Positions 19,170 to 56,310 of a stretch of DNA of 64,000 bases are shown here, piece after piece. The position numbers and the translations under genes are program-made. The notes under the pieces are model-generated. The model made no database searches. It saw only the letters and a list, made by a program, of their open reading frames with translations, and had not been told where the DNA came from. Each line of letters opens with the position of its first letter. Position 1 is the first letter of the stretch. Location: NCBI RefSeq assembly GCF_001524445.2, contig NZ_CP013418.1, forward strand, positions 1,364,001 through 1,428,000. The letters run 5' to 3'. Origin of the DNA: Burkholderia savannae. GTDB lineage: Bacteria > Pseudomonadota > Gammaproteobacteria > Burkholderiales > Burkholderiaceae.

Positions 19170-19227
19170 GTCTTGCTCCTTTTCAATGTGCGCGCCCTGC
19201 GGCGCATGAATACCGATGCTCGACGCA

Positions 19228-22200
19228 TCACGACGGACACCTGAACGACTGCAGGATGCCCGACCATATCGGCGACGGCAGCGTGAGCGCCTGCCATTCG
19301 ATGCGTACCGTGCCGAGGCTCGTCTGATACAGCCGCTCGCGACGGTCCGCCGTACCCGTGCCGCCGATCGCCTGCCCCGCGTCGAAGAAGCGGAACAGCG
19401 CCCACGGCCCGTCGAACTGCAACGTCGTCATCCGGCCGTCGACGGACTTCAGTTGCAGCTTGATCGCGAGCTGCGTGTTCTGGTTGGTCCAGTCGATCCG
19501 GTGCGGCGACGTCACGCCGTGCGCGAAGCGCAGCGTCTGTCCGCCGACCACGAGCTGCGCTTCGGACAACTGCGAATCCATGTCGATGAAGCGCAGCACG
19601 GTCGACACACGCAAGTGCCCCGAATCGTCGAGCATCGCGCCGCGAATGCGGTCGGCCGTCTCGTACGAATTGAGGACCGACTGGCTGACCATCCCGTTCG
19701 GCCCGCCGTTCGAGCGCAGCGCCTGCCACGGCTTCGCGGACGTGTCGACGTACGCGGCGAGGTGATCGCGGAAGTACGTCGCCATCAGGCCTTGCGAGCT
19801 GAACAATCGTTCGAAGTCCTCGACGCCCGCGTCCGCCTGCGTGTTGCGGCGCAACGGATAGCGGCCCGTGAAACCCTGATCGCAGACCATCTTCGTCGCG
19901 CCCGCCGCGCCGCGATTGAGCAACGCGCCGGATTCGCGCGTCGTCATCGTGCTGCCGCTGCTCACGAGGTCGAGCATGATTCCGCGCACGGGCTCCGGCT
20001 GACGCGCGGCCGTCTCCTTCAGCCGCGAGAACGCGTCGTACTGCGCGGGCAGCACCTGGCCCGCCTGCAGCGCGCCGTTGACGAGCCCGAGCTGCCGATA
20101 CAGCGGCTCGAACAGGCGCGACAGCGGATTGGTGGCCACCGAGCTGTTGCGGTTCAACTGCGCGGCGAGCTGGCGGATCGCCTGGAAGTGCTCTTCGACG
20201 ACGTGCTCGGGCAGCAGCACGGTCCGATAGTGCTGGCCGCTCAGCTCGCCGACGATCTGCCGCCGGCCCTTCTCGAAGCGGTACTTCTGCCGATCGATCC
20301 AGCTGTCGATGTTGCCTTCGTCGCTCGCGCCCGTGAGCGTCGTCTCGCGCGCGGCGAAGCGCAGCAGGTTCGCGAGCGGCGACTGCGCCTCCATCATCGC
20401 GGCCGCGAGCTGCGACGCGTCGTCGAGCCCCGTCACGCCGCGCACCGTCACGTCGTTCAGGAAGTTCTGCCAGGCGCCGATGTAGTCCTGAAGGAACTGG
20501 TTGCGCGCGGAATCGGCGAGCTTCTGCACGAGCCCGTCGATCTGGAAGCTGTTGCCCGACAGCGTCTCGTCGCGCAGCACCCAGCTCTCTTCCTCGAGCA
20601 TCGCGCGCGCGCTCTTCTGCAACCTCGGCAGGAACACGTCCGTGTAGCCCGCGCGCGTGAACCAGCCGGACACCGCGGTATCGGTCGACGGCACGTTGCT
20701 GCGCATGCGCAGGCTCATCGCCGCCTCGAAGCCCGCCGCGCGCGACAGCGAAATGTCGTTCACCTGCTGCGGCAGCCCCTGTGCGTGGATGTGCTGCAGC
20801 ACGCGCGTGACGAGCGGAATCTGCGCGGCCTTCGCGCGCGCCGAGCGCACGAGGTTCGCGTCCTCCGGCGTCGCCGGCACGTTCTTCAGCGATATCAGCG
20901 TGCGCACGTGCGCGAGCAGCGAGCGCCGGTCGTCGTCCGAGTACTGGCCGCCCGACAGCGTGTCCCAGCGGCCGTCGAGCCAGCGCACGACGTCGTCCGC
21001 CGAGCGTCGATCAGGACGGCAAAGCATCAGGTAGACCTTCAGCGTCTGGTAAATGTCGCCCGGCGTGCCGTCGACCTGCGACACGAGCGTGCGCCGCACT
21101 TCGTTGTACAGCTCCGGCATCAGCATCTTCTGCAAGTGCCGGTAATAGGTGTCGCGCGCCGTCTCGGCGACGAGCCCGTGCTCGAAGTACGGCGTCGCCA
21201 TCCCCTGCGCGGCGTCCTCGGCCTGCAGCTGCGCGTAGCGCATCTGGTTCGCGATCTCGATGAGCGTCGAGCCGCCGTCGTTACCGTACGACGCATCGGC
21301 CTGCGCGAGCCGCTTCGCCTCGGTGAACTGCGCCCACACGCCGTCGAGGTAGTCGCGCTCGGTGACGTAACCCCAGCCGAACCACAGCAGGAGGCCCAAC
21401 ACGACGATCGGCACCGCGCTCCAGCGCAGCGCGTCGCCCAGGCGGCCGCGCCACGATTTCGGGCCGCTCGGCCGCACGGCGTCGCGCTCGAGCGACACCT
21501 GCCGGATGAGCGGCGTCCACAGCTCGTTCAGCGACCGCGACGGCACCGGCAGCCCCGCCGCGCCGGCGCCCGCCGCGGCCGCCGGATGCGCATCGGCGAG
21601 CTCGGCCATCGAGCCGAGCCACACGCCGCGCAGCCGCGCGGCCGTACGCGTGTCGCCCGGCGCGAGCGCGACGTGCAGCCATGCGACGAGCGCCTTCTGC
21701 ATGCGGCTCAGCGTCTCGACGAAGCGCAACTGCGCATGGTTCATCGACACCTCGGTCGCGGCGGGCGCGGAATACAGCACCTGCTGCTGCACCCGCTGCT
21801 GCAGGCCTTGCAGCGCGTATTGCCACGTCGCGTCGGCGCGCGCGGCGTCAGCCTCGGCGCCGTCGTCAGGCAGGCTGAAGCCGACGCCCCTCACCCACTT
21901 CGACGCGTCCAGCAGCGACAGCGTCGACACCGCGCCGTCGAGCCGATCGAGCCCGTTCAGCGCGACATACACCTGCACCTGCTGACCGAACGCCTCGTGC
22001 ATCTCGTCGAGCCGCGCGCGCACCGAGTCCGCGAGACGCTTGCGCGCGTCGAGCGGCGCATCGATCATGTCGACGCCGTCGAGGCACAGCACGACGCCGC
22101 TGATCGGCGCGCCCTTGCGCAGCCGGCGCATGCCGCGCAGCAGCTTGCGCCAAGCTTCGAGCTCGGCCTCGTCGACACCCGCGCGCAGGCTCCAGCGGCC

Positions 22201-22731
22201 GCCGACATCGAACCACACCGCTTCGCGCGTGATCCGGAAGTTGAAATCGTCGCCGCGGCCGTACGTCGCGTCGGAGCCGAGCACGCGGTCCTGCACCGAG
22301 CCCGACACGTTGACCGCCTTCGCGACGAAGCTCGTCTTGCCACTGCCTTCCGAGCCGAGCACCAGATACCACGGCAGCGTCGCGCGATGCTGGCGCGTGA
22401 GCGCGCCGACCCAGCGCTTCCAGCGGCCGCGCGGCTCCTTCTGCCAGCGCTCCTTCAGTTGCTGGTCGAGGGTGCGCAGATGCTTGTCGACGAAATCGAG
22501 CTGCTTCGTCTTCGGCGCGACCTTGACCTGCCGCGGACTCATCGCGAGCCGCGCCCAAAGGCGCGCGAGCGTCGGCCAGAAGCCCCAGATCAGCACCAGC
22601 GCGACGAGGATCTCGCGCACCCACACGGGGCCGAGCGGGTGATAGATGCCGAACGCGAAGAGCGGCCCCACCCACCAGATCAGGATCGCGATCAGGATCG
22701 CCGCGAATACTCTCAAGCTCGTGCGAATCAT
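19228..22731 (-). CDS. tssM: T6SS membrane-complex protein TssM (IcmF family)
   Basis: 1167 aa inner-membrane protein. Two N-terminal membrane spans (about 8-28 and 38-55), a cytoplasmic ATPase-like domain with Walker A GSEGSGKT at 126-133, a third span near 432-450 (VVLGLLLWFGWGYV), then a large periplasmic IcmF region ending in a C-terminal domain that contacts TssJ. The intact Walker A is notable because several TssM proteins lack it. It overlaps the tssL stop by four bases (ATGA). It forms the TssJLM trans-envelope complex with its neighbours. Length is typical (1100-1300 aa). Confidence 0.96.
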   Translation of the reverse strand: MIRTSLRVFAAILIAILIWWVGPLFAFGIYHPLGPVWVREILVALVLIWGFWPTLARLWARLAMSPRQVKVAPKTKQLDFVDKHLRTLDQQLKERWQKEPRGRWKRWVGALTRQHRATLPWYLVLGSEGSGKTSFVAKAVNVSGSVQDRVLGSDATYGRGDDFNFRITREAVWFDVGGRWSLRAGVDEAELEAWRKLLRGMRRLRKGAPISGVVLCLDGVDMIDAPLDARKRLADSVRARLDEMHEAFGQQVQVYVALNGLDRLDGAVSTLSLLDASKWVRGVGFSLPDDGAEADAARADATWQYALQGLQQRVQQQVLYSAPAATEVSMNHAQLRFVETLSRMQKALVAWLHVALAPGDTRTAARLRGVWLGSMAELADAHPAAAAGAGAAGLPVPSRSLNELWTPLIRQVSLERDAVRPSGPKSWRGRLGDALRWSAVPIVVLGLLLWFGWGYVTERDYLDGVWAQFTEAKRLAQADASYGNDGGSTLIEIANQMRYAQLQAEDAAQGMATPYFEHGLVAETARDTYYRHLQKMLMPELYNEVRRTLVSQVDGTPGDIYQTLKVYLMLCRPDRRSADDVVRWLDGRWDTLSGGQYSDDDRRSLLAHVRTLISLKNVPATPEDANLVRSARAKAAQIPLVTRVLQHIHAQGLPQQVNDISLSRAAGFEAAMSLRMRSNVPSTDTAVSGWFTRAGYTDVFLPRLQKSARAMLEEESWVLRDETLSGNSFQIDGLVQKLADSARNQFLQDYIGAWQNFLNDVTVRGVTGLDDASQLAAAMMEAQSPLANLLRFAARETTLTGASDEGNIDSWIDRQKYRFEKGRRQIVGELSGQHYRTVLLPEHVVEEHFQAIRQLAAQLNRNSSVATNPLSRLFEPLYRQLGLVNGALQAGQVLPAQYDAFSRLKETAARQPEPVRGIMLDLVSSGSTMTTRESGALLNRGAAGATKMVCDQGFTGRYPLRRNTQADAGVEDFERLFSSQGLMATYFRDHLAAYVDTSAKPWQALRSNGGPNGMVSQSVLNSYETADRIRGAMLDDSGHLRVSTVLRFIDMDSQLSEAQLVVGGQTLRFAHGVTSPHRIDWTNQNTQLAIKLQLKSVDGRMTTLQFDGPWALFRFFDAGQAIGGTGTADRRERLYQTSLGTVRIEWQALTLPSPIWSGILQSFRCPS

Positions 22732-24440
22732 GGTTGACGGCCCTCCGTCGTCGCATAAGGCAGTTGTCCTTCAGGCGCGATCTCGACGCCTTCCGGCATC
22801 GCCGGGCGCATCGGGACCTGGCCGGGCTTCTCCGGCTGCTGCAGGTTCAGGTTGCGGTCGTGGCGCTGCGCGCCGTCGGGAATCACCTTCCACAGCACGT
22901 CGACGCGGCGGTTGCGTTCGTACGCGGCGGGCGTCTTTGCCGTGTCGATCGGCTGCCCGTCGCCGCGCCCCGAATACTCGATGTTGCGCTGCACCGAGTT
23001 CTCCGGCGCGCGCGCGCCGCCCGGCAGCGCGGTCTTGCGCAGTTCGTCGGCGACGGTGCGCGCCCGCGCTTCCGACAGCGCCTGGTTGTCCGGGAACTCG
23101 CTCGTGCGAATCGGCCGCGAATCGGTGTGGCCGATCACCTCGAGGTCGCCCGGCCACGGCGCGAACGCGAGGCCGAGCCGCTCGATGTTGTGCATGAAGT
23201 CCGGTCGCACGTTCGCCTTGCCCACGTCGAACGCGCCATCGCTCTTGAACACGAGCAGCCAGCCTTGCGGATGCTTGTACGCCGTGAGCCACCCTTCCGT
23301 CAGGATCTGCGGCAGCGGCGGCGGCAGCGTCTCCGCGATGTTGATCGTGCGCGTGGGCGGCATCCACGCGGCGAGCGCGTTGCGGATCGGCCGCCCCTGC
23401 GAATCGAGCCACAGGCTGATCGCGCCGTAGGCGAGCGCCAGCACGCCGAGCGCGACGACCGCCGCGCGGCCGGCCGTCCACCACGAGCGGCGCCGCTTCG
23501 CGGGCGTGACGAGATCGGTGCCGAGCGGCTCGGGCGGCACGTGATGCCAGATGAGCGCATGCAGCTGCGAGCGCAGGTCCTGCAACAGCACGTCGCCGCG
23601 ATCGAGCACGCGGTAGCGGCCCTGCCAGCCGAGCGACAGGATCAGTTCGTAGAACGACAGAAGCGAGATCGGCGGCTCGGGGGCCTTCATCCAGCGCGAC
23701 AGGTCGGCGAACGCGTCCTCGCCGCCCCACGCGTCGTCGTGGAATTCGACGAGCAAGCTGCGCTCGCCGTCGTAGACGACCTGCGAGTGCTCGCGCGCCG
23801 AATCGTTGACGGTCTCGTCGAGATACGTGCAAAGCAAGTACGACGCGTCGCGGATCTGCTCCCATTCGCAGCCGGAGCCGGCAAGCCGCTCGCGGTAGAG
23901 CCGCACTTCGAGCCCGAGCTGCGTGCGGATCGCGGCCTGGTTGAGCGGCCCGGCCGCGAGATGCCGCTGCAATTGCAGCACCGCGGGCAGCGCGTGCGAC
24001 ACGAACGGGTTGTTCCAGCTCGCCTGCTGCAACCCCGCCTTCATGATCGCGGCCTGCTCGCCCTGCGGGTTGTAGACGACGGGCGACGCCCCGCGCGTGT
24101 CGGCGGGCGCCGCGGCGCCGCCCGGCACCGGGAATTGCAGCACGGCGGGATTGCGGGGCGAGCCGTCGGCATGCGGCAGCGCGTCGCTCGCGGGATGCGC
24201 GCTCGGCGCGGCGGCCGACGATGTGAAGCTCGGCGCACCCGAGCTCGCCGCGCCGCCCGACGCGGCGACGTTCGTCGTGCCGGTGGTCGACACGGCGGAA
24301 CTCGACATCGCCGCGCTCGACAGCGACGACAGCGTCGGAATCCGCGTCGCGAGATCCGGATTCGCCGCCGCGCGATCGAGCATGTTGGACGCCATCGATA
24401 CGCGGCGCAGCGTGGTGGACAGGTTTCGTAGCAGGCTCAT
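22728..24440 (-). CDS. tssL: T6SS membrane-complex protein TssL with C-terminal OmpA-like domain
   Basis: 570 aa. A Ser/Ala-rich low-complexity N-terminus (1-130), the DotU/IcmH cytoplasmic bundle (about 135-310, with YLLCTYLDETVND), one membrane span (about 330-350) and a periplasmic OmpA/MotB peptidoglycan-binding domain (about 400-535, IGHTDSRPI, NQALSEARA, NRRVDV). This is the evolved TssL class that anchors the apparatus to peptidoglycan by itself, so no separate TagL is needed. It lies 25 bp after tssK and overlaps tssM. The tail after the OmpA domain is Pro/Gln-rich. Confidence 0.95.
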   Translation of the reverse strand: MSLLRNLSTTLRRVSMASNMLDRAAANPDLATRIPTLSSLSSAAMSSSAVSTTGTTNVAASGGAASSGAPSFTSSAAAPSAHPASDALPHADGSPRNPAVLQFPVPGGAAAPADTRGASPVVYNPQGEQAAIMKAGLQQASWNNPFVSHALPAVLQLQRHLAAGPLNQAAIRTQLGLEVRLYRERLAGSGCEWEQIRDASYLLCTYLDETVNDSAREHSQVVYDGERSLLVEFHDDAWGGEDAFADLSRWMKAPEPPISLLSFYELILSLGWQGRYRVLDRGDVLLQDLRSQLHALIWHHVPPEPLGTDLVTPAKRRRSWWTAGRAAVVALGVLALAYGAISLWLDSQGRPIRNALAAWMPPTRTINIAETLPPPLPQILTEGWLTAYKHPQGWLLVFKSDGAFDVGKANVRPDFMHNIERLGLAFAPWPGDLEVIGHTDSRPIRTSEFPDNQALSEARARTVADELRKTALPGGARAPENSVQRNIEYSGRGDGQPIDTAKTPAAYERNRRVDVLWKVIPDGAQRHDRNLNLQQPEKPGQVPMRPAMPEGVEIAPEGQLPYATTEGRQP

Positions 24441-48653: not shown

Positions 48654-49015
48654 GGCTGAATGTCGAACGGTTGTATTAGATCTGGCGACGCAGCGCCGCA
48701 AGGGTGTCTCCGGAGTGGCGCGCGCTTGCGGCGCGGGCGGCGGTCACGGGCCGGCGGCGCAAGCACGGCCCGAGTATCGCAGAGCGCGCCGCGGCATAGT
48801 GTCCGCCCCGTGCAAAAGTAACTTGCCGGATTTGCTGGATATTTGCCCGAAATCAACTTCAGGCGACGCGCGCCATCACGCGGCGGGCGACCGCCACATC
48901 TCGGCGTCCCGCTCCCGGCAAAGGCCAAACCTTACACCACACTTTCCGCCCCCGTACAATCGGGCGCCTCAGTCATGAAAAAGCAATAAATTACGATTCC
49001 GTATATATTTCGCCG
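48654..49015. promoter_or_regulatory. Divergent intergenic region, CoA-transferase / phosphonate operon
   Basis: 362 bp with no credible gene. The last 50 bp before the phosphonate operon are AT-rich, with a TATATT element at 49003-49008 directly in front of the first ATG and no visible Shine-Dalgarno. Small frames here are antisense shadows. Confidence 0.5.
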
Positions 49016-49705
49016 ATGGACCCAAGAAAATCCGCCGCCAGCCGCATTTCGAGCCCACCTCCCCGCACGTGGGACGCCCGACTCGCACGCCGGCTCGTCA
49101 CGCCGCTCGTCGGCACGCCGGTGACGCCGAACCACCTGACCACGCTGCGCCTGCTGATCGGCCTCGCGGGCGCGTGGTGCCTCGCGCAACCCGGCTTCGG
49201 CTGGATCAACGCGGGCGCTTTCCTGATCGTGCTGTCCAATTTCGTCGATCACACCGACGGCGAGCTCGCACGGATCAGCGGCCAGTCGAGCAAGCTCGGC
49301 CACTTCTACGATCTCGCGAGCGACGCGCTCGTCACGGTTGCGCTCTTCGTCAGCATGGGCGCCGGCGTCGTCGCGGCGGGCGGCCAGATGGCCGCGTCGC
49401 CCGTGCTGCTCGGCGCGCTCGCGGGCGCGGCCGTCGCGCTCATCTTCTTTCTGCGGATGCGGATCGAGTCGTTCGCGGGCAAGGCGGGCACGAAGCAGGC
49501 ATTCGTCGGCGGCTTCGAGACCGAGGACGTGCTGTATCTGCTTCCCGTCGTCACGCTGCTCGACAGCGTCGAGCCGTTCCTCCTCGCGGCGGCGATCGGC
49601 GCGCCGCTCTTCGCGGCGTGGGTCGTGATCGATTACTGGCGCATCGTGCGCCGCGGCAGCGCGTCCCGCGCGCCCAATTCAACCGAAATCCAACCCACCA
49701 AATGA
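49016..49705 (+). CDS. CDP-alcohol phosphotransferase family membrane enzyme of the phosphonate operon
   Basis: 229 aa integral membrane protein with about six spans. The complete CDP-OH-P-transferase motif D-x2-DG-x2-AR-x8-G-x3-D-x3-D is present at D78, D81-G82, A85-R86, G95, D99 and D103. These enzymes displace CMP from a CDP-activated headgroup or lipid using a second alcohol. Placed first in an operon making 2-aminoethylphosphonate, it most simply transfers a CDP-activated phosphonate to a lipid alcohol such as diacylglycerol; this is inference. No Shine-Dalgarno precedes the ATG and no better start exists upstream. Its stop overlaps the next ATG. Confidence 0.88.
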   Translation: MDPRKSAASRISSPPPRTWDARLARRLVTPLVGTPVTPNHLTTLRLLIGLAGAWCLAQPGFGWINAGAFLIVLSNFVDHTDGELARISGQSSKLGHFYDLASDALVTVALFVSMGAGVVAAGGQMAASPVLLGALAGAAVALIFFLRMRIESFAGKAGTKQAFVGGFETEDVLYLLPVVTLLDSVEPFLLAAAIGAPLFAAWVVIDYWRIVRRGSASRAPNSTEIQPTK

Positions 49706-50475
49706 TCACGGAAACCGAAGCCTGCGCGGCCCACGGCACGCTAGACGAAGCCGTCGCCGCGCGCATCGGCGCGCTCGACGCCGCGCGGCTGCGCGGCGAT
49801 TTCGCGCGGCAGGACGCGTTTGTCTACCTGGACGAATTCCTGCCGAAGGATCTCGCCGGCCGCCTCGCCGACTGCGCCCGCGCGCTCGTGCCCGACATCA
49901 ACCGCAACTTCCTGCCTGGGCACAAGCAAGGCGGCAGCGTAAGCCGCCACACGATCGACGAGAAGGCGCCGCTCATCGCCGAGCTGTACCGCTCGAAGGC
50001 GCTCGTCGGCTTCCTCGAGACGCTGACGGGCGACAGGCTGCTGCCGTCGCCGGACGACGATCCGCACGCGTACGCGCTGTATTACTACACGAAGCCGGGC
50101 GACCACATCGGCTGGCACTACGACACGTCGTACTACGACGGCCGCCGCTACACGCTGCTCTTCGGCGTGATCGACGATTCGACGAGCCGCCTCGACTACG
50201 AATTGCACACGCGCAACCCGGGCGTCGCGGACGAGCCGGGTTCGGTGCAGATCGCGCACGGCGGCATCGTGTTCTTCGACGGCGACAAGCTGCGCCACCG
50301 CGTGACACCGCTCGGCGAGAACGAGATCCGCGTGTCGCTGACGTTCGAGTACGTGACCGACCCCGGGATGCGGCCGTGGAAACGTTTCGTGTCGAACATG
50401 AAGGACGCGATCGCGTACTTCGGCTTCCGTCAGGTATTCAAGCAAACGGCGACGCGCCGCCCGTCGCGCTCATGA
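49702..50475 (+). CDS. 2-oxoglutarate/Fe(II)-dependent oxygenase of the phosphonate operon
   Basis: 257 aa from MITETEACAAHGTLDEAV. Cupin-like 2OG oxygenase with iron triad H139-x-D141 (GWHYDTSYYDGRRY) and H199 (DKLRHRVTPLG), and the 2-oxoglutarate arginine R210 (ENEIRVSLTFEY). The ALYYYTKPGDHIGWH approach is typical. Likely a hydroxylase acting on a carbon atom of the phosphonate headgroup (for example 1-hydroxylation of AEP) or on the lipid chain. The substrate is inferred from context only. Coupled to both neighbours by ATGA overlaps. A longer frame reading back to 49069 overlaps the first gene and is rejected. Confidence 0.88.
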   Translation: MITETEACAAHGTLDEAVAARIGALDAARLRGDFARQDAFVYLDEFLPKDLAGRLADCARALVPDINRNFLPGHKQGGSVSRHTIDEKAPLIAELYRSKALVGFLETLTGDRLLPSPDDDPHAYALYYYTKPGDHIGWHYDTSYYDGRRYTLLFGVIDDSTSRLDYELHTRNPGVADEPGSVQIAHGGIVFFDGDKLRHRVTPLGENEIRVSLTFEYVTDPGMRPWKRFVSNMKDAIAYFGFRQVFKQTATRRPSRS

Positions 50476-51473
50476 CGCGCACCGGCATGATCCTGCTGTC
50501 GCTCGGGACGGCGGCGTTCGTCGCCCTCCTCGCGTGGCAGGGCTTCGGCGCGGTCGCAGCGACGCTGTTCGCGGCCGGCTGGGGGCTCGCGCTCGTCGCG
50601 GCGTTCCACCTGGTGCCGCTCGTCATCGACGCGGCCGCGATCGCAGTGATGTTCCGTCCCGGCGAGCCGGGCAGCGGGCTTCATGACGCGCTGCGCGCGC
50701 GCTGGGTCGGCGAATCGGTCAACAGCCTGCTGCCCGCCGGGCAGATCGGCGGGCCGGTGCTGATGGTCCGCCATCTCGCGCAGCGCGGCGCGCGCCTGGC
50801 CGACGCGGCGGCCGCGATCACGGTCAGCACGACGATGCAGGCGCTCGCGCAGATGGTGTTCGCGCTCGTCGGCATCGCGGCGTTCAGCGCGTACGCGACG
50901 CACGACGCCGCGTCGCATCTGCGCACGCCTGCGCTGATCGCGACCGCGGTGCTGGGCGGCTGCGCCGCGCTCTTCTACTTCGCGCAGCGTCGCGGCCTGT
51001 TCGGGCGCGGGCTGCGCGCCGCGTCGAAGCTGCTCGGCCCGCGCGACTGGTCGTCGCTCGCGACGCGCGCGGACGCCATCGACGACGCGCTCGGCAAGCT
51101 GTACCGCGAGCGAGCGAAGGTGCGCACGACATTCGTGCTGAGCCTCATCGGCTGGGTCGTCGGCACCGCGGAAGTGTGGCTCGCGCTGCGCTTTCTCGGC
51201 CATCCGGTGAGCTGGCTCGACGCGCTGCTCCTCGAGAGCGTCGGGCAAGCGATCCGCGGCGCGGCGTTCGCGATCCCCGGCTCGCTCGGCGCGCAGGAAG
51301 GCGGCTATCTGCTGCTCGCGCCGCTCGTCGGGCTGCCGCCCGACGCAGCGCTCGCGCTGTCGCTCGCGAAGCGCGCGCGCGAGCTCGCGCTCGGCCTGCC
51401 CGGCATCCTGTATCTGCATTTCAGTGAAAGAAACTGGCAGCGGCGGCGCGCGCCGCAGCCGATCGCCGACTGA
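50472..51473 (+). CDS. HpnL/lysylphosphatidylglycerol-synthase-TM-like flippase-type membrane protein
   Basis: 333 aa from [16 protein letters not shown]. About eight membrane spans with UPF0104-type signatures: [19 protein letters not shown], and near the end [16 protein letters not shown]. Relatives include the transmembrane half of MprF, which flips lysyl-phosphatidylglycerol, and HpnL. Here there is no catalytic synthase domain, so the gene supplies only the translocase-like part. In this operon it is a candidate translocator of a phosphonolipid. ATGA-coupled to the oxygenase gene; the next gene starts 41 bp later. Confidence 0.85.
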
Positions 51474-51514
51474 TCCGACGACGAGACGGTCGGCGCCCTT
51501 TGCGTGGAGAACTC

Positions 51515-52282
51515 ATGCGAGCCATCATTCTTGCGGCGGGCCTGGGCCTGCGCCTGCAACTGCCTCCCGAGGCTCAATTCCCGAAGTGCCTGCTGCGCTT
51601 CGACGACAAGTCGCTCCTCGAGCGGCACCTGCGCGTGCTCGACGCGGCGGGCGTCGACGAGATCGTGCTCGCGCTCGGCTTCCAGTCCGAGAAGGTCGAA
51701 GCCGAGCTCGCGCGCCTGAACCGCAAGGCCGAAATCGTGCTCAACCCGCGCTACGACCTCGGCAGCGTGCTGACTGTGCACGCGGCCGCCGACGCGCTCA
51801 CGCGCGGCGGCGACGTGCTGCTGATGGACGCCGACGTGCTGTACGACGAGAGCATCCTGCACGCGCTCGTCGCGGAGCCGTCGCGCGCGATCGATCGCCT
51901 TCTGATCGACCGCGATTTCGAAACGGGCGACGAGCCCGTCAAGCTGTGCGTGAAGGACGGCGTGCCGGTCGAGCTGCGCAAGCAGGTCGCCGCCAATCTC
52001 GACTACGACACGATCGGCGAATCCGTCGGCTTCTTCCGTTTCAGCGAAGGCGCCGCGCGCCGGCTCGCCGAGATCGTCGCGGGCTACGTCAACGGCGGCC
52101 GCGCGAACATGCCGCACGAAGAGGCCGTGCGCGACCTGCTGCTCGAAGGCGGCCGCGCATTCGACATCGCGGACGTGACGGGCGCGCCGTGGATCGAAAT
52201 CGATTTTCCGGGCGACGTCGCGCGGGCTCGCGACGAAGTCCTGCCGCACATCCAACAACGAACGATAGGGGCCATCCGATGA
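51515..52282 (+). CDS. Stand-alone nucleotidyltransferase (phosphocholine cytidylyltransferase-like)
   Basis: 255 aa from [20 protein letters not shown], with a GGAGA RBS 5 bases upstream (a TTG 15 bases earlier is less likely). GT-A-like NTP-transferase fold: signature loop AAGLGLRL with FPK (K24), substrate loop [13 protein letters not shown], and a metal-site DADVLY. Similar enzymes such as LicC activate phosphocholine with CTP, and PntC-type enzymes activate 2-aminoethylphosphonate. It is therefore the best candidate to make CDP-AEP in this operon. It is ATGA-coupled to the PEP mutase fusion, which carries a second, more divergent copy of the same domain. Confidence 0.87.
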
Positions 52283-53967
52283 ATGCACGCGAACCGAACT
52301 TCACCGAATCGCGCAGCGCGCGGCTGCGGCGGATGCTGACGAGCCGCGAGCTCGAATTCCTGATGGAAGCGCACAACGGCCTGTCCGCGCGGATCGTCCG
52401 CGAGGCGGGCTTCAAGGGGATCTGGGCGTCGGGGCTCGCGATCTCCGCGCAGTTCGGCGTGCGCGACAACAACGAGGCGAGCTGGACTCAGGTCGTCGAC
52501 GTGCTCGAATTCATGGCCGACGCGAGCGACCTGCCGATCCTGCTCGACGGCGACACCGGCTACGGCAACTTCAACAACGTGCGCCGGCTCGTGAAGAAGC
52601 TCGAGCAGCGCGGCATCGCCGGCGTGTGCATCGAGGACAAGCAGTTTCCGAAGACCAACAGCTTCATCGACGGCGAGCGCCAGCCGCTCGCCGAGATCGA
52701 CGAATTCTGCGGCAAGATCAAGGCCGGCAAGGATTCGCAGAGCGACCCGGATTTCTCGATCGTCGCGCGTGTCGAGGCGCTGATCGCCGGCTGGGGGATG
52801 GACGAGGCGCTGCGCCGCGCGAACGCGTACGCGCAGGCCGGCGCGGACGCGATCCTGATCCACAGCAAGCTGTCGCGGCCCGACGAGATCCTGCAGTTCG
52901 CGCGCGAATGGAGCGGCCGCGCGCCGCTCGTGATCGTGCCGACCAAGTATTACAGCACGCCGACCGACATGTTCCGCCAGGCCGGCATCAGCACCGTGAT
53001 CTGGGCGAATCATCTGATCCGCGCGTCGGCGTCCGCGATGCAGGCAGTCGCGCGCGAAATCCAGGACGGCGAAACGCTCGTCAACGTCGAGGAGCGCGTG
53101 GCGAGCGTCAACGAGATCTTCCGTCTGCAGGACGCCGACGAATACTCGGCCGCCGAGCGGATCTACCTGTCGTCGAGCTCGCGCGCGTCGAGCGCGGCGC
53201 TCGTGCTCGCGGCGAGCCGCGGCAAGGGGCTGGAGGCCGTCACAGAGGACAAGCCGAAGGTGATGCTGCCGATCGCCGGCAAGCCGCTCCTGCGCTGGCT
53301 CGTCGACGGCTTCAAGAAGCAGGGCGTGAACGACATCACGGTCGTCGGCGGCTATCGCGCCGATGCGATCGACACGTCGGGCGTGAAGCTCGTCGTCAAC
53401 GAGCGGCACGCGCAAACGGGCGAGCTAGCGTCGCTCGCGTGCGCGGCCGAGCGCCTCTCGGGCGACACCATCGTCTCGTACGGCGATCTGCTGTTCCGCA
53501 GCTACATCCTGCGCGATCTCGCCGAGAGCGAGGCCGAGTTCAGCGTCGTCGTCGATTCGTCGCAGACGCAGCCGTCGAACCAGAGCGTGCGCGACTTCGC
53601 TTTCTGCTCGGCCGCCGACGACCGCGGACTGTTCGGCCAGAAGGCCCATCTGCGCCGCGTGTCGAGCGATGCGAGCGAGGGCGAGCCGCACGGCCGCTGG
53701 ATCGGGCTCCTCAACGTTCGCGGCGCGGGCGTCGCGCGGCTGAAGGCGATGCTCGACACGCTGAAGGCGCGCGGCGATTTCGATTCGCTCGATTTGCCGG
53801 CGCTGCTGAACGCGCTCGTCGACGCGGGCGAGAAGATCGAAGTGCAATACGTGCACGGCCACTGGCGCGGCGTCAACGATCTCGACGACTTCCGCCGCGC
53901 GGGCGATTTCGCGCACGGCCAGACGCCGTATGCGGAGCAGAGCGCGGCCAACGGAGGCGCGAGATGA
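52279..53967 (+). CDS. aepX: Phosphoenolpyruvate mutase fused to a nucleotidyltransferase-like domain
   Basis: 562 aa. N-terminal PEP mutase (about 15-295), with Mg-site DGDTGYGN (D90, D92) and the mutase-specific [10 protein letters not shown] (E119 to S128), the EDK-x5-NS motif that separates phosphonate-forming mutases from isocitrate-lyase relatives. It turns PEP into phosphonopyruvate, the committed step of phosphonate synthesis. C-terminal NTP-transferase domain (about 318-550) with a degenerate signature loop AASRGKGL, where the usual loop is G-x-G-x-R, followed by DKPKVML. So the fused domain may be inactive, altered or regulatory. ATGA overlaps with both neighbours. Confidence 0.93.
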
Positions 53968-55172
53968 TCGAAGCCGCACAGTTCGTCGAGGCGGCGCGCG
54001 AGCGCGGCTTCGACTGGTACGCGGGCGTGCCGTGCTCGTATCTGACGCCGTTCATCAATTACGTGTTGCAGGACCCGGCGCTCCATTACGTGTCGGCGGC
54101 GAACGAAGGCGATGCGGTCGCGCTCGTCGCGGGCGCGACGCTCGGCGGCCGGCGCGGGATCGCGATGATGCAGAACTCGGGGCTCGGCAACGCGGTGAGC
54201 CCGCTCACGTCGCTCACGTGGACGTTCCGGCTGCCGCAACTGCTGATCGTCACGTGGCGCGGCGAGCCGGGCGTGCACGACGAGCCGCAGCATGCGTTGA
54301 TGGGCCCGATCACGCCGGCGATGCTCGACACGATGGAAATCCCGTGGGAAACATTCCCGACGGAAGCCGACGCGATCGGCCCGGCGCTCGATCGCGCGAT
54401 CGCGCACATGGACGCGACGGGCCGCCCGTACGCGCTCGTGATGCAAAAAGGCAGCGTCGCGCCCTACGCGCTCGAGCGCGCGGCGATGCCCGAGCGCCGC
54501 GCGCACGTCGCCGCGCATTCGACGCAGCGCGCCGCCGAGCCCGCCGAGCCCGCGGCGTCGCCGACGCGTCGTGACGCGCTCGCGCGGATCGTCGAGCGCA
54601 CGCCCGTCGACTCGACGGTCGTGCTCGCGTCGACGGGCTTCTGCGGCCGCGAGCTGTACGCGATCGACGATCGCCCGAACCAGTTGTACATGGTCGGCTC
54701 GATGGGCTGCGTGACACCGCTCGCATTGGGCCTCGCGCTCGCGCGGCCGGATCTCGCCGTCGTCGCGGTCGACGGCGACGGCGCCGCGCTGATGCGCATG
54801 GGCGCATTCGCGACGCTCGGCGCGTACGGGCCGTCGAACCTCGTGCACCTGCTGCTCGACAACGGCGCGCACGAATCGACGGGCGGCCAGGCGACGGTGT
54901 CGCAATACGTGTCGTTCGCGGGCGTCGCGGCCGCATGCGGCTACGCGTCGGCGATCGAAGGCGACGATCTCGGCGTGCTCGACGCGGCGCTCGACGCCGC
55001 ACGCGCGGGCGAGCAGGCGCAAAAGCAAAAGCATGGCGGCGCGCACTTCGCGCGCCTGTCGATCCGCACCGGCGTGCCCGACGGCCTGCCTCGCCCGAGC
55101 GTGACGCCCGTCGACGTGAAGGCGCGCCTGATGCGCCACATCGGCGCGACGCCTGCCCGACGAGGAGAATGA
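53964..55172 (+). CDS. aepY: Phosphonopyruvate decarboxylase
   Basis: 402 aa thiamine-diphosphate enzyme. The PYR-domain begins [15 protein letters not shown] and holds the activator Glu in [10 protein letters not shown]. The PP-domain has the ThDP/Mg motif [12 protein letters not shown] followed by [13 protein letters not shown]. It makes the otherwise unfavourable mutase step irreversible by producing phosphonoacetaldehyde. Length matches known enzymes (about 380-400 aa). The linker between domains (about 178-200) is Ala/Glu/Pro-rich. ATGA overlaps on both sides. Confidence 0.93.
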
Positions 55173-56242
55173 AGATGCTGTTGCTGAATCCCGGCCCCGT
55201 GACGCTGACGGAACGCGTGCGCAGGAGCCTCCTCCAGCCGGACCTGTGCCATCGCGAAAGCGAGTTCTTCGATCTGCAAGACGAGGCGCGCGCGCGGCTC
55301 GTCGCCACGTATGCGCTCGATCCGGCCGAATGGAGCGCGGTGCTGATGACGGGCTCCGGCACGGCCGCGGTCGAGAGCATGATCGCCGCGCTCGTCCCCG
55401 AGAACGGCAAGCTGCTCGTGATCGAAAACGGCGTGTACGGCGAGCGGATCACGCAGATCGCCGCGCAGTACCGGATCGCGCACGAGGTGCTGAAGCACGA
55501 CTGGATGCAGGCGCCGGATCTCGCGCGCGTCGCCGCGAGGCTCGACGCCGATCGCGCGATCACGCACGTCGCGGTGATCCACCATGAAACGACGACGGGC
55601 CGCCTGAACGATCTCGACGCGCTCGCCGCCGTGTGCCGCGCGCGCGGCGTGCGGATGCTCGTCGACGGCGTGAGCAGCTTCGGCGCGGAAGCGATCGATT
55701 TCGCGGGCGGTGACATCGACGCAATCGCCGCGACCGCGAACAAGTGCCTCCACGGCGTGCCGGGCGCGGCGTTCGTGATCGTGCGCCGCCGCGCGCTCGC
55801 GTCGGCCGCGAGCCGCACGTACTACCTCGATCTCGGCCGGCTCGCGACATTGCAGGACGCGCGCAACACGCCGTTCACGCCGTCGGTTCACGCGTACTAC
55901 GCGCTCGTCGAGGCGCTGCGCGAATTCGACGAGGCGGGCGGCTGGCGCGCGCGCCACACGCGCTACGCGGCGCTCGCCGAGCAGGTGCGCGCGGGTCTCG
56001 CCGCGCGCGGGATGCCGCTCGTGCTGCCGGACGGCGAATCGTCGGTCGTGCTGCGCGCGTACCGGCTCCCGGCCGGTGTCACGTACGAGCAGTTGCACGA
56101 CGGGCTCAAGGCGCGCGGCTTCGTGATCTACGCGGGCCAAGGCGGGCTGTCGAGCGCGTTGTTCCGCGTGTCGACGATGGGCGCGATCGAACCGGCGGAC
56201 GTCGAGCGCCTGCTCGACGGCTTCACGGCGCTCACGCGCTGA
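55169..56242 (+). CDS. aepZ: 2-Aminoethylphosphonate:pyruvate transaminase (biosynthetic context)
   Basis: 357 aa class V PLP aminotransferase. N-terminal LLNPGPVTLTERVRRSL, the PLP lysine K192 in ATANKCLHGVPGA, and VDGVSSFGAEAID. In degraders (PhnW) the enzyme runs from AEP to phosphonoacetaldehyde. Beside PEP mutase and decarboxylase it should run in the making direction, giving AEP. No phosphonatase (phnX) is nearby, which supports biosynthesis. Last gene of the operon, followed 32 bp later by a strong terminator. Confidence 0.93.
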   Translation: MKMLLLNPGPVTLTERVRRSLLQPDLCHRESEFFDLQDEARARLVATYALDPAEWSAVLMTGSGTAAVESMIAALVPENGKLLVIENGVYGERITQIAAQYRIAHEVLKHDWMQAPDLARVAARLDADRAITHVAVIHHETTTGRLNDLDALAAVCRARGVRMLVDGVSSFGAEAIDFAGGDIDAIAATANKCLHGVPGAAFVIVRRRALASAASRTYYLDLGRLATLQDARNTPFTPSVHAYYALVEALREFDEAGGWRARHTRYAALAEQVRAGLAARGMPLVLPDGESSVVLRAYRLPAGVTYEQLHDGLKARGFVIYAGQGGLSSALFRVSTMGAIEPADVERLLDGFTALTR

Positions 56243-56274: not shown

Positions 56275-56310
56275 CGGCGCCGCGCTCGATTGCGCGGCGC
56301 CGCTTTTTTT
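56275..56310 (+). terminator. Rho-independent terminator of the phosphonate operon
   Basis: 11-bp perfect GC-rich stem (CGGCGCCGCGC at 56275-56285, partner 56292-56302), a six-base loop TCGATT, then a run of seven T (56304-56310). It sits 32 bp after the transaminase stop and faces the plus-strand operon. Confidence 0.92.

What the first reader, a model, noticed from the sequence alone, without database searches (positions are those of the whole stretch)
49016..56242. Seven-gene operon that reads as a pathway for a lipid-linked phosphonate
Seen: PEP mutase (EDK-x5-NS), phosphonopyruvate decarboxylase and AEP transaminase sit with a CDP-alcohol phosphotransferase (full motif), a nucleotidyltransferase, an HpnL/MprF-type membrane protein and a 2OG-Fe(II) oxygenase. 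All are joined by ATGA overlaps except one 41-bp gap, and the unit ends at a strong terminator. Known: AEP synthesis plus PntC-type CDP activation feeds phosphonolipids in some bacteria such as Treponema. Inference: this operon makes 2-aminoethylphosphonate, activates it as CDP-AEP, puts it on a lipid alcohol and moves it across the membrane, possibly as a hydroxylated headgroup. I do not know of a described phosphonolipid for this Burkholderia group.
Basis: partly seen in the sequence, partly recalled or inferred. Interest (0 to 1): 0.9.

Follow-up and report, generated by a model that had tools for sequence, protein, structure and literature searches.

The report
Phosphonate lipid operon, perhaps on hopanoids
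A conserved Burkholderia operon appears to build an unusual phosphorus-carbon head group and attach it to a membrane lipid, and in some related genera it sits beside hopanoid genes, which suggests that the lipid could be a hopanoid (a bacterial counterpart of cholesterol).

Summary
The operon is real at the stated coordinates: seven genes, five ATGA overlaps, one 41-bp gap, terminator-like hairpin at 56275-56302. The AEP enzymes pass curated cut-offs, the CDP-alcohol phosphotransferase has the full motif, and the oxygenase is HalD/BesD-like with intact HxD, so a hydroxylase. The CDP-AP is in 64 of 65 genus genomes. The phosphonolipid reading is already in print (PMC5987646, after Yu 2013). Added here is a hopanoid connection: HpnL is a hopanoid-associated family; 87 of 87 operon genomes match hopene cyclase and HpnH, though G048 has only broken cyclase copies; hpnN/hpnM lie within about 4 kb in 9 of 20 other family genomes, 5 of 10 genera, and five of these continue into a hopanoid island with shc. 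Roseomonas pepM-shc linkage is published (PMC8776678). Best reading: CMP-activated (hydroxy)AEP goes to a membrane alcohol, slightly more likely a hopanoid polyol than diacylglycerol. In Burkholderia itself hpn genes are not beside it (0 of 12 loci). Chemistry is untested.

The parts
49016..49705 (+). CDP-alcohol phosphotransferase (229 aa); proposed to move the CMP-activated phosphonate onto a membrane alcohol
   Evidence: PF01066 54 bits; catalytic motif identical in 33 of 33 rows; nearest solved structures AF2299 and IPCT-DIPPS; two other CDP-APs in the genome
49702..50475 (+). 2OG-Fe(II) oxygenase, HalD/BesD-like, with H139-x-D141 and H199; proposed phosphonate hydroxylase
   Evidence: PF23169 52 bits; BesD-type PDB hits; GDHIGWHYD identical in 32 of 32 rows
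50472..51473 (+). HpnL-family membrane protein; proposed flippase
   Evidence: TIGR03476 380 bits vs cut-off 195.65; PF03706
51515..52282 (+). Standalone nucleotidyltransferase with G-x-G-x-R and PK; proposed PntC (CTP:AEP cytidylyltransferase)
   Evidence: PF12804; best PDB hit Treponema PntC-AEPT 6pd1, aligned 2-249, E 2.3e-8; motif conservation
52279..53967 (+). PEP mutase (N-terminal) fused to a variant nucleotidyltransferase domain (about 53191-53967) in which GxG(T/S)R reads SRGKG
   Evidence: TIGR02320, PF13714, PF12804; LicC alignment; variant motif in relatives
53964..55172 (+). Phosphonopyruvate decarboxylase
   Evidence: TIGR03297 457.6 bits
55169..56242 (+). 2-aminoethylphosphonate aminotransferase (PhnW-AepZ type)
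   Evidence: TIGR03301 404.2 bits
56275..56302 (+). Intrinsic terminator-like hairpin ending the operon
   Evidence: 11 G-C pairs, T run

Best explanation
A seven-gene operon makes a phosphonate head group and puts it on a membrane lipid. PEP -> phosphonopyruvate (PepM) -> phosphonoacetaldehyde (Ppd) -> 2-aminoethylphosphonate (AEPT). The 2OG enzyme hydroxylates the phosphonate, probably at C1 of AEP. The standalone nucleotidyltransferase makes CMP-(hydroxy)AEP. The CDP-alcohol phosphotransferase transfers the phosphonate, with loss of CMP, to a hydroxyl of a lipid alcohol; the most likely acceptor is a hopanoid polyol such as bacteriohopanetetrol. The HpnL-family protein moves the product across the inner membrane. 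Shown here: the genes, motifs, conservation, and co-occurrence and partial linkage with hopanoid genes. Inferred: every substrate, the site of hydroxylation, the acceptor and the transport. The role of the fused PepM nucleotidyltransferase domain is not assigned.
For: Enzyme assignments. Co-conservation: CDP-AP in 87 of 200 relatives, PepM over cut-off in 86 of these 87, the HalD-like 2OG in 86 of these 87 and in 0 of 113 others. In genus g20 the operon is split into cdpAP-2OG-HpnL-NTP and PepM-Ppd-AEPT, yet 3 of 3 genomes keep both halves, and G102 has a piece of the NTP gene just upstream of PepM. Hydroxylase: HxD identical in 32 of 32 rows; in G199 a PhyH enzyme whose best NCBIfam match is methylphosphonate hydroxylase PhnY (199.5 bits, cut-off 500) lies in the 2OG slot. 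Hopanoid link: HpnL family; hopene cyclase matched in 87 of 87 operon genomes against 17 of 113 others; HpnH in 87 of 87 against 16 of 113; hpnN/hpnM within about 4 kb of the operon in 9 of 20 non-Burkholderia family genomes with flanks read, 5 of 10 genera, in two arrangements; island as far as shc in 5 of these 9 plus Pandoraea capi. Published: pepM linked to hopene cyclase in Roseomonas (PMC8776678, passages).
Against: In the window's own genome shc is about 0.73 Mb from the operon, and 0 of 12 Burkholderia loci and 0 of 2 order-level loci show hpn genes other than HpnL-like ones in the flanks read. The linked genera are deep branches near each other on a tree with some weak supports, so linkage may be one or two events. 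Co-occurrence is confounded by phylogeny and genome size: of the 20 family genomes without cyclase that one search lists, 18 are under 3 Mb (8 more are not listed). At order level there are only 2 operon genomes (both with cyclase; chance 0.018). Of the 87 cyclase matches, G055's is below cut-off (cut by contig ends) and G048 has only copies broken into frames or partial, so G048 may carry the operon without an intact cyclase. HpnL has no established function (PMC12583986). The nearest solved CDP-APs are not known to use hopanoids (recalled). G205 keeps the four-gene module but has no PepM above cut-off. The G078 CDP-AP match holds one stop. No sequence sign of the acceptor itself was found.
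Confidence: 0.43

Rival explanations
1. Classical phosphonolipid: CMP-(hydroxy)AEP is transferred to diacylglycerol (or alkyl-acylglycerol), giving a phosphonate analogue of phosphatidylethanolamine; the hopanoid neighbourhood only reflects shared envelope biology.
For: This fits the reading in print for the homologous Nostoc and Burkholderia clusters (PMC5987646: Fig. 7 legend, and an abbreviation list with DAG, AAG, HAEP and CMP; the figure and supplement were not seen). CEPT1, which uses diacylglycerol (recalled), is a weak PDB match (8gyw, E 0.089). Not beside hpn genes in Burkholderia itself. G048 lacks an unbroken cyclase frame.
Against: Does not explain HpnL-family membership, the nesting in genomes with hopanoid genes or the hopanoid islands.
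Confidence: 0.37
2. The phosphonate goes to a ceramide, an inositol or other lipid, or to a glycan; NTP4 and CDP-AP may act like the cytidylyltransferase and phosphotransferase pair of inositol lipids.
For: NTP4 (60.7 bits) and CDP-AP (31.9) both score against the IPCT-DIPPS family, far below its cut-off of 580; hydroxy-AEP is reported on lipids of Bdellovibrio stolpii (PMC8154272, passages and reference title). Two Nitrospinota/Nitrospirae MAGs carry NTP-like, CDP-AP and HpnL-like genes in a row, with no PepM in the 3.4 kb held there.
Against: No glycosyltransferase, LicD or inositol gene among the seven; NTP4's best solved relative is an AEP cytidylyltransferase.
Confidence: 0.13
3. The operon makes a diffusible phosphonate natural product.
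For: Burkholderia carry other pepM clusters of this kind (PMC12871164, abstract and passages); the same genome has two more PepMs over cut-off in other gene settings.
Against: CDP-AP and HpnL are membrane-protein families; presence in 64 of 65 genus genomes is unlike an accessory antibiotic cluster (inference).
Confidence: 0.05

Closest known systems
Phosphonate cluster of lichen Nostoc with homologous Burkholderia cluster (PMC5987646, Fig. 7 legend; after Yu et al. 2013)
   Same: Same gene types in the legend: CDP-AP, OG-Fe(II) oxygenase, NTP transferase, pepM, ppd, AEPT, hpnL; phosphonolipid reading
   Different: No hopanoid link in the passages read; product not isolated there; figure and supplement not seen
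Pnt pathway: PntC of Atopobium rimae and PntC-AEPT of Treponema denticola (PMC6697681; passages and parts 2 and 3 of 8 read)
   Same: AEP synthesis plus CTP:AEP cytidylyltransferase; clusters with both a Ppm-fused and a separate nucleotidyltransferase
   Different: Those neighbourhoods have LicD-like or glycosyltransferase genes; here a CDP-AP, HpnL and 2OG oxygenase
pepM-hopene cyclase hybrid clusters of Roseomonas (PMC8776678, passages read)
   Same: PEP mutase linked to hopanoid genes; the authors suggest an undiscovered terpene-phosphonate
   Different: Alphaproteobacteria; CDP-AP, HpnL and 2OG not mentioned in the passages read; those genomes were not inspected here
Hydroxy-AEP sphingophosphonolipid of Bdellovibrio stolpii (cited in PMC8154272)
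   Same: Hydroxylated AEP as lipid head group
   Different: Acceptor is a sphingolipid; genes not compared here
Flavophos cluster of Burkholderia (PMC12871164, abstract and passages)
   Same: pepM cluster in Burkholderia
   Different: Free antimicrobial phosphonate by way of 2-phosphonomethylmalate

Membership tests
AEP biosynthesis (PepM-Ppd-AEPT) | PepM with EDK-x5-NS and curated-cut-off scores for all three enzymes | tested here: met
   TIGR02320, TIGR03297, TIGR03301 above cut-off; [10 protein letters not shown]
PntC-type phosphonyl cytidylyltransferase | GXG(T/S)RX4-8PK motif | tested here: inconclusive
   NTP4 keeps G-x-G, Arg and PK, but has Leu for T/S and 9 residues between R and PK; the fused PepM domain reads SRGKG and lacks the Arg
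PntC-type phosphonyl cytidylyltransferase | Preference for AEP over phosphocholine | not testable with these tools
   Needs purified enzyme
CDP-alcohol phosphotransferase | D-x2-D-G-x2-A-R-x8-G-x3-D-x3-D | tested here: met
   Eight fixed positions identical in 33 of 33 rows
HpnL (TIGR03476) | Score above 195.65 bits | tested here: met
   380 bits
HalD/BesD halogenase | No carboxylate in HxD (BesD reads HWG, its lysine hydroxylase relative HWD) | tested here: not met
   H139-Y-D141 identical in 32 of 32 rows; hydroxylase-type
Hopanoid-linked phosphonate cluster | Intact squalene-hopene cyclase in every operon genome | tested here: inconclusive
   Matched in 87 of 87, above cut-off in 86; G055 cut by contig ends, G048 only broken or partial copies
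Hopanoid-linked phosphonate cluster | HpnH in every operon genome | tested here: met
   87 of 87 above cut-off
Hopanoid-linked phosphonate cluster | Physical linkage to hpn genes in the window's own genome | tested here: not met
   shc at C2:2149774, operon from C2:1413016; of the hpn genes searched none but hpnL is in the window
Phosphonolipid operon | C-P lipid in extracts | not testable with these tools
   Needs 31P NMR and MS

The most novel reading that the evidence does not exclude
The operon makes a phosphonohopanoid: (1-hydroxy-)2-aminoethylphosphonate joined through a CDP-alcohol phosphotransferase to a bacteriohopane polyol and flipped by HpnL. It would be a lipid class that joins a zwitterionic C-P head group to a sterol-like body, near-core in Burkholderia and present in other hopanoid producers.
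Probability: 0.38. Interest if true: 0.87.

Novelty: new variant of a known kind. Interest (0 to 1): 0.62.

Why it matters
If the acceptor is a hopanoid, a phosphorus-carbon bond would cap a sterol-like lipid in a large genus, and HpnL, whose function is not established (PMC12583986, passages), would gain a testable substrate. Most bacterial phosphonate capacity is held to serve cell-surface tailoring while the later steps remain enigmatic (PMC6697681, abstract). Such a lipid could be missed by usual hopanoid or phospholipid work-ups (inference). Even if the acceptor is diacylglycerol, a near-universal phosphonolipid operon in Burkholderia is a concrete target for lipidomics.

Tried and rejected
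Halogenase reading of the 2OG protein: rejected, HxD intact. Housekeeping phospholipid enzyme: unlikely, two further CDP-APs in the genome and co-occurrence with PepM. The four-gene module of genus g20 as proof that AEP is not the substrate: rejected, PepM-Ppd-AEPT lie elsewhere in 3 of 3 genomes; in two named Paraburkholderia (L113, L114) PepM is on another contig, but in L107 none passes the cut-off. G146 as a minimal set without 2OG or NTP4: rejected after reading more of the contig. PhoB-box scan: 4 weak matches in the window against 9.7 expected, none upstream of the operon. Promoter scan: 1 match at 48931-48960, 0.7 expected. The pattern scan for the 2OG motif used an A/T-ending Ile codon to avoid most Burkholderia; it gave 18 loci, 15 Burkholderiaceae and 3 Nitrospinota/Nitrospirae MAGs, and is not a full distribution. 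The one protein search listed the best 120 of 3573 hits; the organisms named among them are Burkholderia, Paraburkholderia and Trinickia. On rechecking I lowered the hopanoid odds from 0.45 to 0.43 (and 0.40 to 0.38 for the novel case) because of G048.
Full report
Observation. Seven + strand genes run from 49016 to 56242 with five ATGA overlaps and one 41-bp gap, and end at a strong terminator-like hairpin. One feature was missed: PepM is fused to a second NTP_transf_3 domain. Upstream, on the other strand, is an acetyl-CoA hydrolase/transferase family gene; the downstream genes were not run against a family library.

Enzymes. PepM, Ppd and AEPT pass curated cut-offs and define AEP synthesis. 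The standalone nucleotidyltransferase aligns over its length with the PntC domain of Treponema 6pd1 and keeps the Arg and Lys whose alanine mutants fell below 10% activity in Tde-PntC (PMC6697681, part 3 read). The fused domain has SRGKG in the window where the Arg is expected; the row variants printed cover 26 of 33 rows and share this lack, and PK and YGDL are kept in 33 of 33 rows. It is a conserved variant, role unknown. Rice et al. describe clusters with both a fused and a separate nucleotidyltransferase. The CDP-AP motif is identical in 33 of 33 rows; two other CDP-APs in the genome are probably the housekeeping ones (inference). The oxygenase belongs with HalD/BesD but has HxD in 32 of 32 rows, like the lysine hydroxylases and unlike BesD, so it should hydroxylate.

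Conservation. In 200 relatives (own genome included) the CDP-AP is found in 87: 64 of 65 in the genus, 21 of 56 other family genomes, 2 of 79 other order genomes. PepM over cut-off is in 87 of 200, 86 shared; the exceptions are G014, a draft in which PepM is present in pieces, and G072, which has a 35%-identical PepM without the CDP-AP. The 2OG is in 86 of 200, each a CDP-AP genome; of the CDP-AP genomes only G199 lacks it. Of 32 loci read, 26 have the complete window order, 1 (L059) has it up to the contig end, 3 (genus g20) have cdpAP-2OG-HpnL-NTP4 alone, and 2 order-level genomes differ. In the three g20 genomes PepM-Ppd-AEPT sit elsewhere, and in G102 a C-terminal NTP4 piece directly precedes PepM, the trace of a former junction. 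In G146 the order is 2OG-NTP4-PepM-Ppd-AEPT-cdpAP with an HpnL-like gene convergent (144.7 bits to HpnL, under cut-off); its 2OG lies in two pieces. In G199 two CDP-APs, a PhyH oxygenase (best NCBIfam match methylphosphonate hydroxylase, 199.5 bits, cut-off 500), NTP4 and the AEP genes are together, with no HpnL there. A phosphonate-hydroxylase-like enzyme in the oxygenase slot supports hydroxylation of the phosphonate itself.

Hopanoid link by co-occurrence. The window's third gene is an HpnL by curated score; the genome has three HpnLs, one other beside hpnI/J/K homologues and one beside HpnI. HpnL's function is not established (PMC12583986, passages). Squalene-hopene cyclase is matched in 104 of 200 relatives, including 87 of 87 CDP-AP genomes; none of the 96 genomes without a match has the CDP-AP. 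Two of the 87 are weak: G055's matches are cut by contig ends and stay below cut-off, and G048 has one copy in two frames and one partial copy. HpnH, for extended hopanoids, is in 103 of 200 and in 87 of 87. In other family genera the association holds (21 of 21 against 7 of 35) but is confounded by small genomes: 18 of the 20 cyclase-less family genomes listed are under 3 Mb. Among 79 order-level genomes, 11 have the cyclase and both operon genomes are among them (chance 0.018). Sixteen HpnH genomes have no operon, so hopanoids do not need it.

Physical linkage. hpnN and/or hpnM lie in the fetched flanks in 9 of 20 non-Burkholderia family genomes (G100 was not fetched), in 5 of 10 genera: downstream of AEPT in g7, g8, g11 and g16, upstream of the CDP-AP in g15; 0 of 12 Burkholderia loci and 0 of 2 order-level loci show it. 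The nearest hpn gene is within 0.25 kb in G070, G094, G078, G098 and G113 and 2-4 kb away, past dxs, in G079, G099, G114 and G108. In G094 the operon is followed by hpnN, hpnM, ispH, hpnH, hpnA, hpnB, hpnG, shc, hpnE, hpnD, hpnC; in G099, G114, G079 and G108 dxs lies between and the island continues to shc. In g7 and g15 only hpnN and hpnM were seen. NCBIfam puts HpnN, A, B, E, D, C and Shc of G094, and HpnH and Dxs of G099, above cut-off, IspH of G099 too; HpnM of G094 is below its cut-off; HpnG was not tested. Pandoraea capi shows the same island, dxs through hpnC, next to its operon. On an operon tree the linked genera are the deep branches and Burkholderia lies in the unlinked remainder, with some weak supports, so linkage looks ancestral with later loss (inference).

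Other phyla. A pattern scan found the 2OG in three Nitrospinota/Nitrospirae MAGs, with no phosphonate gene in the 3-8 kb held. All three have a hopene cyclase; two have a PepM over cut-off with a 557-558-aa frame next to a Ppd-like gene, and one a PepM-like protein below cut-off. Two carry an NTP-like gene, a CDP-AP protein and an HpnL-like gene in a row, but the CDP-AP matches are weak (E 2e-13 and 5e-12), the HpnL scores are under cut-off (146.6 and 170.1), and the NTP-like piece of G201 has no Pfam match. This is a parallel, not proof.

Prior work. PMC5987646 names a homologous Burkholderia cluster and reads the Nostoc one as phosphonolipid synthesis, after Yu et al. 2013, which is not held. 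A 2009 paper already placed a B. xenovorans phosphonopyruvate decarboxylase by gene context with PEP mutase and AEP transaminase (PMC2776528, passages). PMC8776678 reports hopene cyclase linked to PEP mutase in Roseomonas and suggests an undiscovered terpene-phosphonate. The listings of searches show no title or abstract start that reports a phosphonohopanoid or an isolated Burkholderia phosphonolipid; several listings were capped (for example 25 of 300), and most subscription papers are not in that library.

Verdict. A real, near-core operon; the phosphonolipid reading is sound but was predicted before. The hopanoid connection in this family is the added part; it makes the acceptor a directly testable question, and it is not yet secure.

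Noticed in passing
L011:8703-13155 (own genome C2, about 51 kb before the window): A second pepM cluster: PepM, Ppd, a TauD-like dioxygenase (below cut-offs) and phosphonoacetaldehyde dehydrogenase above cut-off (TIGR03250, 822 bits). Product unknown.
   Followed up: partly
L012:4910-10401 (own genome C1): A third pepM cluster: unfused PepM, a class I aminotransferase-like protein and a PhnY-like oxygenase below cut-off, with a LuxR-type regulator nearby (named from recall).
   Followed up: partly
window 24466-45532, - strand: A type VI secretion gene cluster: VasE, TssF, TssG, ImpA_N, an AAA (ClpV-like) protein, two VgrG-like baseplate proteins and a DUF2169 pentapeptide protein.
   Followed up: no
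L078:9065-9235: A C-terminal NTP4 piece directly upstream of PepM in a genome where the operon is split, a trace of the ancestral junction.
   Followed up: yes
L109: Candidatus Burkholderia brachyanthoides (3.5 Mb, a leaf-nodule symbiont by recall) keeps all seven genes in order, although its 2OG match covers only part of the protein.
   Followed up: partly
L107 (Paraburkholderia adhaesiva, G205): Keeps the four-gene cdpAP-2OG-HpnL-NTP4 module but has no PepM above cut-off; an assembly gap or another phosphonate source.
   Followed up: partly
L096 and L100 (G048 C2:2224660-2226545): The squalene-hopene cyclase of an operon-bearing genome lies in two frames, and its second copy is partial; possibly an operon genome without an intact cyclase.
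   Followed up: partly
window 19216-22737, + strand: A 1173-aa open frame with no Pfam match at E 1e-8; a 1167-aa frame lies opposite it, so the coding strand was not settled.
   Followed up: no
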